This document shows, piece by piece, positions 16,017-38,039 of a stretch of DNA of 64,000 nt. The stretch is from Limnohabitans sp. GTDB taxonomy: Bacteria > Bacteroidota > Bacteroidia > Flavobacteriales > Flavobacteriaceae. Position 1 is the stretch's first letter. Every line of letters starts with the position of its first letter. Made by a program: the position numbers and the translations under genes. The DNA lies in assembly GCA_030053945.1 (NCBI GenBank), contig JASGCW010000001.1:113074-177073 (forward strand), in the 5' to 3' direction. The notes beneath the pieces are model-generated. The model was not told where the DNA came from. It did no database searches and saw only the letters and a program-made list of their open reading frames with translations.

Positions 16017-16234
16017 GTAACTATTCAGTTAGTTAGGGTTTGTATAATAGTTGTTGTTTTATTGATTAGTAAGTTTTAAAGCAATGTGATTTTTTCAATA
16101 GAGTTGAATAATTACCTGATTTAAGCTATTACACCTGACAGGTTTTTCAAAACCTGTCAGGTGTAATAAAGAAACCGTGTTTAACAGCAACTCTATTTAT
16201 TATCAAACGAATAAAGTAATAGCTGAATAGTTAC
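16017..16234 (+). mobile_element. MITE-like element copy 1: 218 bp, 12-bp TIRs, 8-bp target-site duplication ATTTTCCT
   Basis: GTAACTATTCAG (16017-16028) / CTGAATAGTTAC (16223-16234); ATTTTCCT at 16009-16016 and 16235-16242. Confidence 0.85.
16127..16168. repeat. Perfect 20-bp-arm hairpin (TATTACACCTGACAGGTTTT-TC-AAAACCTGTCAGGTGTAATA)
   Basis: Direct inspection; inside MITE copy 1; related hairpin near 31114-31142. Confidence 0.95.
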
Positions 16235-23605: not shown

Positions 23606-23764
23606 ATGTATAAAATCATCATCACAATATTAGTTGGTTTAACACTGCTTTCTTGCGGTCCAAGAAGATTGCGTTGTGGTCCTAATCGCCGCTGTGATAT
23701 TAATAATAAAAATTACCCAAATGAAAAAAATTATATACAGCCTAGCAATTATTGCTACGCTTAG
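23606..23764 (+). CDS. Small Cys-rich lipoprotein, 52 aa (missing from ORF track)
   Basis: MYKIIITILVGLTLLSCGPRRLRCGPNRRCDINNKNYPNEKNYIQPSNYCYA*; lipobox LLSC; overlaps the next gene by 44 nt. Confidence 0.6.
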   Translation: MYKIIITILVGLTLLSCGPRRLRCGPNRRCDINNKNYPNEKNYIQPSNYCYA

Positions 23765-24035
23765 TGTTTCTGCACAAGATAAAAAATTAAAAAATCAAAT
23801 TGTAGAGGCTTCTTGCGGTATGTGCCAATTAGGAACTACAGATAAAGTTTGTGCACTTTCTATAAGATATGAAGGAAAAGTCTATTCTGTAATTGGAACA
23901 GATATTCACAAACACGGAAATGCACACGCAGAAGATGGTTTTTGTAATGCTATTCGAAAAGCTAAAGTTAGCGGAGAAATTAAAGACAAAAATTTTATAT
24001 CAACCTCTTTCGAATTACTTCCCAACAAAAAATAA
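23721..24035 (+). CDS. DUF6370-like small secreted Cys-containing protein
   Basis: Signal peptide MKKIIYSLAIIATLSVSAQ; SCGMCQLGTTDKVCALSI. Confidence 0.65.
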   Translation: MKKIIYSLAIIATLSVSAQDKKLKNQIVEASCGMCQLGTTDKVCALSIRYEGKVYSVIGTDIHKHGNAHAEDGFCNAIRKAKVSGEIKDKNFISTSFELLPNKK

Positions 24036-24037
24036 TC

Positions 24038-24305
24038 GTAACTATTCAGTTGTTGCGATAAATGATTGTTATGATAAAGTCAAAGCACAAATAACAAAAT
24101 ACAGATAAATTCCAATATTCAAGTGATTCAAAATATCAAACATTTCAAATTGAACTCAGTCTTTTTAGAATTTGAAATTTAATTTTTTGAATTTATTTAG
24201 CTTCGCTCAGTTCGGCTTCGCCTCGAGTGTATTTTGGTGCTTGTCATTTGGGTTTTATCAACTCAAGTTATTATTAAACTAATAAAGTAATGCCTGAATA
24301 GTTAC
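24038..24305 (+). mobile_element. MITE-like element copy 4: 268 bp, 12-bp perfect TIRs, 8-bp target-site duplication AAATAATC
   Basis: GTAACTATTCAG (24038-24049) / CTGAATAGTTAC (24294-24305); AAATAATC at 24030-24037 and 24306-24313. Confidence 0.88.
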
Positions 24306-24418
24306 AAATAATCAAAAATAATTTTCCAAAAAGCTTAGTATAACTCTAATTTTAATTCTTTTTTTCAGACCTTTGCACTCGCTTTTTTTGTAACATCCAA
24401 AATATTAGGCTTTTAGAA

Positions 24419-26290
24419 ATGAAGAAGAAGATTGAAATTTTAGCTCCAGCAAAAGATTTAATTACGGGTATCGCGGCAATCAATGCGGGTGCCGATGCAG
24501 TTTATATAGGTGCGCCACAATTTGGTGCTCGTTCTAACGCACACAATCCTATTGAAGATGTTGCCGAACTAGTAAAATATGCTCATTTATATAATGTGCA
24601 AGTTTTTGTGGTTATCAATACCATTTTGTATGATGACGAATTGGAAACTTGTCGCAAAATGATTTGGAAATTGTACGAAATAGGGGTTGACGCACTTATC
24701 ATTCAGGATATGGGCTTATTAGAATTAGACCTACCTCCTATCGCACTTCACGCTAGTACACAATCTAACAATCGTGATCCTAAGAAAATTAAATTCCTAG
24801 CTGATGCTGGTATCCAACGTGTGGTTTTAGCACGCGAATTGAATCTTCACCAAATTAAAGAAATCAGCCAAGAAACAGATGTTGAATTAGAATTCTTCGT
24901 AACTGGTGCTCTATGCGTTTCTTTCAGTGGAAACTGCTATATGAGTGTCGCTAATGGAGAGCGTTCGGCAAACAGAGGCTCTTGCGCTCAAAACTGTCGC
25001 TTACCGTATAACTTAATAGATGGAAACGGGGATACGTTAATACGAAATAGCCATTTACTTTCAATTAAAGACTTCGACGTTTCAAATCAAATTCCAAATT
25101 TAGTTGAAGCGGGTATTTGTTCTTTCAAAATTGAAGGACGTTTAAAAGATGTGGTGTATGTAAAAAACAATGTTTCTTTTTTACGTAAAAAATTAGATGC
25201 TTTTTTAGCTGAAAATAGCGACAAATACATCAAATCTTCTTCTGGAACTTGTACCTACACTTTTGATTCTGCTTTAGACAGAACCTTTAACCGTGGCTAT
25301 ACCGATTATTTCGTTAACGAAAGACATCAATCCATTGGTTCTTGGGAAAGTCCTAAATCGAAAGGGCAATACATAGGAAAACTAATAAAAACAGTTGGAA
25401 ATTCGTACATCATCGAAAATGGCGAAATGCTCAACAATGGTGATGGACTTTGTTTTATAAATGAGAATAAAGAAGCCGAAGGGATTTATGTAAATAAAGC
25501 TGAAAATGGTGTTGTCACTCCTAATGTTTTAAAAGAAATTGCTGCTGGAACCGAAATTTACCGTAACAACGATGCCGCATTTATCAGATTAGTTGAAAGA
25601 GAAGATAGTGCTGTTCGAAAAATTAGCACTTCGTTAGTATTAAAAGAAACTGAAACTGGATTTGAATTAATCGCTACCGATGAAGATGGAAATATAAGTA
25701 CTGTACGATTAGACCATCCAAAAGAAGAAACTAAAACAGGCGATTCGTTAACAGAAAACTTCAAGGTAAACTTGGCAAAAACAGGTTTTACACCTTATAC
25801 CGCTGACGAAATCACAATTGAATTTTCTAAAAACTGGTTCCTTCCTATTTCAAAAATCAATGAGATGCGAAGAAATGTGTACGAGCAGTTATCTGAAATT
25901 CGTTTAGCTAGTTATGTTCGTCACGAGCATCAACTAGAAAAAACATCGCATCCTTACCCAGAAACGCATTTAGACTTTACATATAATGTTTCTAATAAAT
26001 ATGCTCGTGCTTTTTATGAGCGTCACGGCGTAACCGAAATAGAAAAAGCATTTGAATTACAATGGGACCCAGGGAAATCGCGCGTAATGACCACTAAATA
26101 TTGTATCAAATACGAATTAGAGCGTTGTCCAAAATACCATCGTGAAAATATGGATCAAAAAGTAAAAGAGCCATTAGTACTAAAACAAGGTGAATTAGAA
26201 TATAAACTAAAATTCAATTGCAAACCTTGCGAAATGGAAATTTGGGAAAAAGATGCGGAATTTGAAATAGAAGAAGATCACTTTCATTAA
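24419..26290 (+). CDS. Peptidase U32 family protein (tRNA hydroxylation / collagenase-like family)
   Basis: EILAPAKDLITGIAAINAGADAVYIGAPQFGARSNA; ANRGSCAQNCRLPY; C-terminal Cys cluster. Confidence 0.9.
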   Translation: MKKKIEILAPAKDLITGIAAINAGADAVYIGAPQFGARSNAHNPIEDVAELVKYAHLYNVQVFVVINTILYDDELETCRKMIWKLYEIGVDALIIQDMGLLELDLPPIALHASTQSNNRDPKKIKFLADAGIQRVVLARELNLHQIKEISQETDVELEFFVTGALCVSFSGNCYMSVANGERSANRGSCAQNCRLPYNLIDGNGDTLIRNSHLLSIKDFDVSNQIPNLVEAGICSFKIEGRLKDVVYVKNNVSFLRKKLDAFLAENSDKYIKSSSGTCTYTFDSALDRTFNRGYTDYFVNERHQSIGSWESPKSKGQYIGKLIKTVGNSYIIENGEMLNNGDGLCFINENKEAEGIYVNKAENGVVTPNVLKEIAAGTEIYRNNDAAFIRLVEREDSAVRKISTSLVLKETETGFELIATDEDGNISTVRLDHPKEETKTGDSLTENFKVNLAKTGFTPYTADEITIEFSKNWFLPISKINEMRRNVYEQLSEIRLASYVRHEHQLEKTSHPYPETHLDFTYNVSNKYARAFYERHGVTEIEKAFELQWDPGKSRVMTTKYCIKYELERCPKYHRENMDQKVKEPLVLKQGELEYKLKFNCKPCEMEIWEKDAEFEIEEDHFH

Positions 26291-37807: not shown

Positions 37808-38039
37808 GTAACTTTTCAGCCAGTTAGATAAAATAACATAAATGACAAAATACAAATGAATCCCAATATTTTAATGATTCAAAAAGTAAAACATTTTGGA
37901 TATTCGACACTTTTTGTCCCGAAGTTTCGGAATTGAGATTTGTTTCTTTGAATTTATTTGTTTTTTGGGGTTTGCTATTTGGCATTTACGTTGTTTTGAT
38001 TTTTTTGTCAAGCGAATAAAGCTATAACTGAATAGTTAC
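37808..38039 (+). mobile_element. MITE-like element copy 5: 232 bp, near-perfect 12-bp TIRs, probable decayed target-site duplication
   Basis: GTAACTTTTCAG (37808-37819) / CTGAATAGTTAC (38028-38039); flanks ATATATTTA versus ATATATTAT. Confidence 0.75.

What the first reader, a model, noticed from the sequence alone, without database searches (positions are those of the whole stretch)
24030..24313. Cleanest MITE copy: perfect TIRs, exact 8-bp duplication AAATAATC, inserted 2 bp past a stop codon
GTAACTATTCAG (24038-24049) and CTGAATAGTTAC (24294-24305) are flanked by AAATAATC at 24030-24037 and 24306-24313. The duplicated octamer includes the TAA stop (24033-24035) of the upstream gene, so insertion left the ORF intact while replacing its 3' UTR. 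Together with copy 1 this fixes the duplication length at 8 bp.
Basis: seen in the sequence. Interest (0 to 1): 0.75.

Follow-up and report, generated by a model that had tools for sequence, protein, structure and literature searches.

The report
IS66-type MITE inserted beside a gene
This is a genuine small "passenger" transposon (a MITE) in a Flavobacterium genome. It has 40-odd relatives there, its ends match those of a known transposon group (IS66, ISBst12 group), and its landing site lies just past a gene's stop codon and is empty in related species. It is a well-resolved but ordinary kind of mobile element.

Summary
The genome has 91 exact TIR 12-mers (reversed-pattern control 0). I paired 42 elements: 25 have an exact 8-bp duplication, none a 7- or 9-bp one, against 0.59 expected. 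The MITE reading is supported. I could also name the likely engine. Complete Bacteroidota elements with the same ends encode one IS66-family transposase (ISBst12 group), and one has a perfect 8-bp duplication. Published, actively transposing ISDge4 of that group has near-identical ends and an 8-bp repeat. No such transposase is detectable in this assembly, so the family looks orphaned. An empty orthologous site exists: genome G377 has DUF6370 then U32 with 106 bp between, against 107 bp here after removing the element and one octamer. Landing on a stop codon is not special (6 of 31 elements, 4.7-6.0 expected). The 3'-UTR idea is untested and no terminator was found. This is a new member of a known kind: well resolved, modest interest.

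The parts
24030..24037 (.). left copy of the 8-bp target-site duplication AAATAATC (contains the TAA stop 24033-24035)
24038..24305 (.). 268-bp MITE without coding capacity; 17-member subfamily in this genome, closest copy C15:66580-66861 at 90%
24038..24049 (+). left terminal inverted repeat GTAACTATTCAG
24294..24305 (-). right terminal inverted repeat (CTGAATAGTTAC on +)
24306..24313 (.). right copy of the target-site duplication AAATAATC
24200..24224 (-). internal module GAGGCGAAGCCGAACTGAGCGAAGC, 18 copies genome-wide (within 2 mismatches)
23721..24035 (+). host gene upstream: 104-aa DUF6370 protein (PF19897), left intact
24419..26290 (+). host gene downstream: U32 peptidase family protein (PF01136 + DUF3656); conserved upstream stretch from about 24359 lies beyond the element
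16017..16234 (.). other copy in the window (218 bp, 11-member subfamily), perfect TIRs, 8-bp duplication ATTTTCCT
37808..38039 (.). older copy (232 bp), one TIR with a mismatch (GTAACTTTTCAG), no clean duplication

Best explanation
The feature is a non-autonomous miniature transposon (MITE) that an ISBst12-group IS66 transposase moved in trans. The DDE transposase recognises the GTAACTATTCAG ends and inserts them into a staggered 8-bp cut at an A/T-rich target (consensus near AAWWWWTT); gap repair leaves the 8-bp duplication. Here the target octamer spanned the stop codon of a DUF6370 gene, so the gene kept its stop and the 268-bp element now separates it from the U32 gene. Shown: anatomy, copy number, exact 8-bp duplication, lineage-specific insertion with an empty orthologous interval, and the same ends on complete ISBst12-type IS66 elements elsewhere in Bacteroidota. 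Inferred: that such a transposase actually moved these copies, since none is found in this assembly, and that the family is now immobile here.
For: Perfect TIRs and duplication; 91 exact TIRs against 0 control; 25 of 42 elements with an exact 8-bp repeat against 0.59 expected, none at 7 or 9. L235 (uncultured Bacteroidetes MAG) has GTAACTATTCAG at both ends of a 1522-bp element with one intact 455-aa ORF whose TAG stop lies inside the right TIR; that ORF matches the IS66 query at 63% identity over residues 4-280. L241 (Chitinophaga MAG) has GTAACTAATCAG / GTGACTAATCAG ends with a perfect 8-bp duplication aaaaaatg. F. ranwuense (G198) and G257 carry decayed IS66 transposases directly behind GTAACTATTCAGCCTGTTC. 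Published ISDge4 (ISBst12 group, single 449-aa transposase, seen to transpose) has ends GTGACTACTCAGCA / GTAACTGCTCAGCA and the 8-bp repeat CCTCGATG (PMC12898284). Empty site: G377 spacer 106 bp against 107 bp after removing element and one octamer.
Against: No PF03050 match and no match to the 455-aa transposase in the own genome, so the engine is not seen beside its passengers; G057, which has the same kind of MITEs, also lacks it. Similarity between the MITEs and the known autonomous elements is confined to the TIR, so the MITE is not a simple internal deletion of a known IS. L235's flanks do not show a duplication.
Confidence: 0.9

Rival explanations
1. The MITEs are moved by the other IS66 group, the longer roughly 2.36-kb type present in the genus.
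For: Those elements also start with GTA and make perfect 8-bp duplications in G177 and G059.
Against: Their ends are GTATGCACCCGAGCAA / GTATCCACCCGAGCAA, only about 5 of 12 positions like the MITE, while the ISBst12-type ends are identical. No PF03050 match of either type in this genome.
Confidence: 0.04
2. The MITEs are moved by a transposase of another family, unrelated to IS66, with convergent ends and 8-bp staggering.
For: No IS66 transposase in the assembly; several IS families make 8-bp duplications (general knowledge).
Against: Exact 12-bp identity with complete IS66 elements, and near-identity with ISDge4. No other family was seen with these ends, although only PF03050 and loci carrying the exact TIR were examined.
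Confidence: 0.05
3. The insert is a functional 3'-end element (terminator or mRNA stabiliser) kept by selection behind the DUF6370 gene.
For: Position 2 bp past the stop; folding energy below shuffles (z -3.35).
Against: No terminator match. Overlap of the duplicated octamer with a stop codon is as frequent as chance across the family (6 of 31, expected 4.7 to 6.0). It is absent in orthologues. Most other copies sit in intergenic DNA with no particular relation to stops.
Confidence: 0.05

Closest known systems
ISDge4 (IS66 family, ISBst12 group; Deinococcus geothermalis)
   Same: ends GTGACTACTCAGCA / GTAACTGCTCAGCA match GTAACTATTCAG at 10 of 12 positions each; 8-bp direct repeat; single-transposase group (PMC12898284)
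   Different: autonomous, with a 449-aa transposase; different phylum; the MITE has no ORF
ISBst12-type IS66 element of an uncultured Bacteroidetes MAG (L235:234-1755) and of a Chitinophaga MAG (L241:890-2443)
   Same: identical (L235) or 1-2 mismatch (L241) ends; L241 has a perfect 8-bp duplication
   Different: 1.5 kb, encodes the transposase; no similarity to the MITE interior
MITECca01 of Cardinium (Bacteroidota), derived from ISCca4 of the IS982 family (PMC9769881)
   Same: about 240-bp IS-derived MITE, high copy, mostly intergenic, in a Bacteroidota genome
   Different: parental IS is of the IS982 family and intact copies are present; here the transposase group is IS66 and no copy is found

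Membership tests
MITE (prokaryotic) | short (mostly under 300 bp), no transposase gene | tested here: met
   268 bp; paired elements 105-298 bp plus one of 550 bp
MITE (prokaryotic) | terminal inverted repeats with target-site duplication of constant length | tested here: met
   12/12 TIR; 25 of 42 exact at 8 bp, none at 7 or 9
MITE (prokaryotic) | dispersed multicopy, with empty sites | tested here: met
   91 exact TIRs, 42 paired elements, empty interval in G377
IS66 family, ISBst12 group (as mobilising family) | end sequence shared with autonomous members | tested here: met
   L235 identical at both ends, L241 within 2 mismatches; ISDge4 published ends
IS66 family, ISBst12 group (as mobilising family) | 8-bp target duplication | tested here: met
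   for the MITEs; L241 aaaaaatg
IS66 family, ISBst12 group (as mobilising family) | encodes a single IS66 transposase (PF03050) | tested here: not met
   the MITE encodes nothing, and no PF03050 in the genome; so it is a passenger of the group, not an IS66 element itself
IS66 family, ISBst12 group (as mobilising family) | mobilisation of the MITE by the transposase | not testable with these tools
   needs a transposition assay

The most novel reading that the evidence does not exclude
A large orphan MITE population (over 40 copies, three main subfamilies) persists without any detectable cognate transposase. Its interiors exchange small palindromic modules between copies, so the MITEs may serve as landing pads for a second class of small mobile palindromes.
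Probability: 0.15. Interest if true: 0.5.

Novelty: new member of a known kind. Interest (0 to 1): 0.27.

Why it matters
It ties a high-copy repeat family that breaks up this assembly to a defined transposase group, gives an exact rule for annotating it (GTAACTATTCAG, 8-bp duplication), and supplies an empty site. In the papers searched here no MITE of the ISBst12 group was reported and the TIR string does not occur, so it extends the range of that poorly studied group. It would not surprise a mobile-element specialist.

Tried and rejected
PF03050 in the own genome: none. The longer IS66 type of the genus as the partner: wrong ends. Plasmid collection: no match. U32 neighbourhoods of 40 relatives: most had another upstream gene, so the empty site was found through the DUF6370 gene instead. 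Insertion preference for stop codons: a raw list of distances looked enriched, but a matched null removed it. Rfam: only a tRNA in the window. Intrinsic terminator in or near the element: none. Literature search for the TIR string: no paper. Review of prokaryotic MITEs: no mention of IS66. Not tried: non-IS66 transposase families in the own genome.

Full report
Observation. The sequence at 24030-24313 is exactly as described. Two perfect 12-bp inverted repeats bound a 268-bp segment, and AAATAATC flanks both sides. The TAA inside the left octamer (24033-24035) ends a 104-aa DUF6370 protein. The duplication is 8 bp and no more. Under a chance model the 12-mer would be rare, yet the own genome holds 91 exact copies against none for the reversed control.

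Family. I fetched the surroundings of the TIR hits and paired them. Of 42 pairs, 25 have a perfect 8-bp direct repeat and 33 have at most one mismatch; none repeats at 7 or 9 bp. Dealing the right flanks out anew gives 0.59 perfect matches. All 17 pairs with both TIRs exact have a duplication with at most one mismatch. Targets are A/T-rich with a symmetric tendency, A at positions 1-2 and T at 7-8. Lengths run from 105 to 298 bp with one of 550 bp. Three main subfamilies (17, 11 and 7 members) share little beyond the ends. The window element belongs to the 17-member group; its closest copy is on contig C15 at 90% identity. Several contigs end about 55 bp inside an element, so the assembly itself is broken by the family.

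Empty site. Orthologues of the DUF6370 gene in 19 sampled relatives have no TIR within 400 bp of the stop. Two keep the gene order of the window: G377 (DUF6370 then U32) and G219 (purT, DUF6370, U32). In G377 the stop-to-start distance is 106 bp. In the window it is 107 bp once the element and one octamer are removed, and the two spacers align through to the conserved stretch before the U32 gene. G219 has a longer, different spacer, also without the element. Species divergence is high, so this is an orthologous empty interval rather than a base-perfect empty allele.

Engine. The own genome has no PF03050 match. The longer IS66 elements of the genus make 8-bp duplications but have other ends, GTATGCACCCGAGCAA. 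A TIR search in 400 genomes of the genus led to F. ranwuense (G198), where GTAACTATTCAGCCT stands next to an IS66 transposase, and to the same arrangement in G257. Pfam and NCBIfam assign these transposases to IS66. A scan of genome contigs with their alignment gave complete elements. L235 is 1522 bp with GTAACTATTCAG at both ends and one intact 455-aa ORF, which the scan matched at 63% identity to the IS66 query; its stop codon TAG is part of the right TIR. L241 is 1554 bp with GTAACTAATCAG / GTGACTAATCAG and a perfect 8-bp duplication. Independently, ISDge4, placed by its authors in the ISBst12 group of IS66 and seen to transpose, has ends GTGACTACTCAGCA and GTAACTGCTCAGCA and an 8-bp repeat (PMC12898284). 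The 455-aa transposase has no match in the own genome or in G057, which carries the same kind of MITEs. The MITEs thus appear to be orphans, with the caveat that a draft of 313 contigs can miss a repeat.

Mechanism. The best-supported account is trans-mobilisation by an ISBst12-group transposase, insertion into a staggered 8-bp A/T-rich target, and repair to the 8-bp duplication. Anatomy, duplication rule, empty interval and shared ends are shown; mobilisation itself is inferred.

Effect on the host gene. The ORF is intact and the downstream U32 upstream region is untouched. Across the family, overlap of the duplicated octamer with a stop codon (6 of 31 elements) is what intergenic length and target composition predict (4.7 to 6.0). 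There is no intrinsic-terminator match. The insert folds better than shuffles (z -3.35), as an element with inverted ends must to some degree. An effect on mRNA is possible and untested.

Verdict. The finding is real and correctly read. It is a new member of a known kind, a MITE family served by the ISBst12 group of IS66.

Noticed in passing
24200-24224 and 17 other sites in the own genome: Palindrome-rich module GAGGCGAAGCCGAACTGAGCGAAGC recurs (18 copies within 2 mismatches), many of them inside these MITEs, and is present in some copies of a subfamily and absent in others.
   Followed up: partly
about 24182-24192 compared with L110 (C15 copy): The C15 copy carries CCCGAAGTTTCGGG where the window copy has a T-rich gap of 11 bp; similar CCCGAAGCTTCGGGA palindromes occur in other copies.
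   Followed up: no
16017-16234: The 11-member subfamily carries an ACACCTGACAGGTTTT...AAAACCTGTCAGGTGT palindrome in its centre.
   Followed up: no
G057 (L131, L137, L139, L140, L141): A second genome of the genus carries MITEs with the same or nearly the same TIRs and exact 8-bp duplications but no detectable IS66 transposase of this type.
   Followed up: partly
L145:2535-2850 (G016): Short element whose two ends are recognisably the right and left ends of an ISBst12-type IS66, apparently an internally deleted copy, i.e. a possible MITE precursor.
   Followed up: partly
ends of contigs C34, C80, C91, C132, C203, C222, C239, C279, C307 of the own genome: Contigs stop within about 55-85 bp inside a TIR, so these elements fragment the draft assembly.
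   Followed up: no
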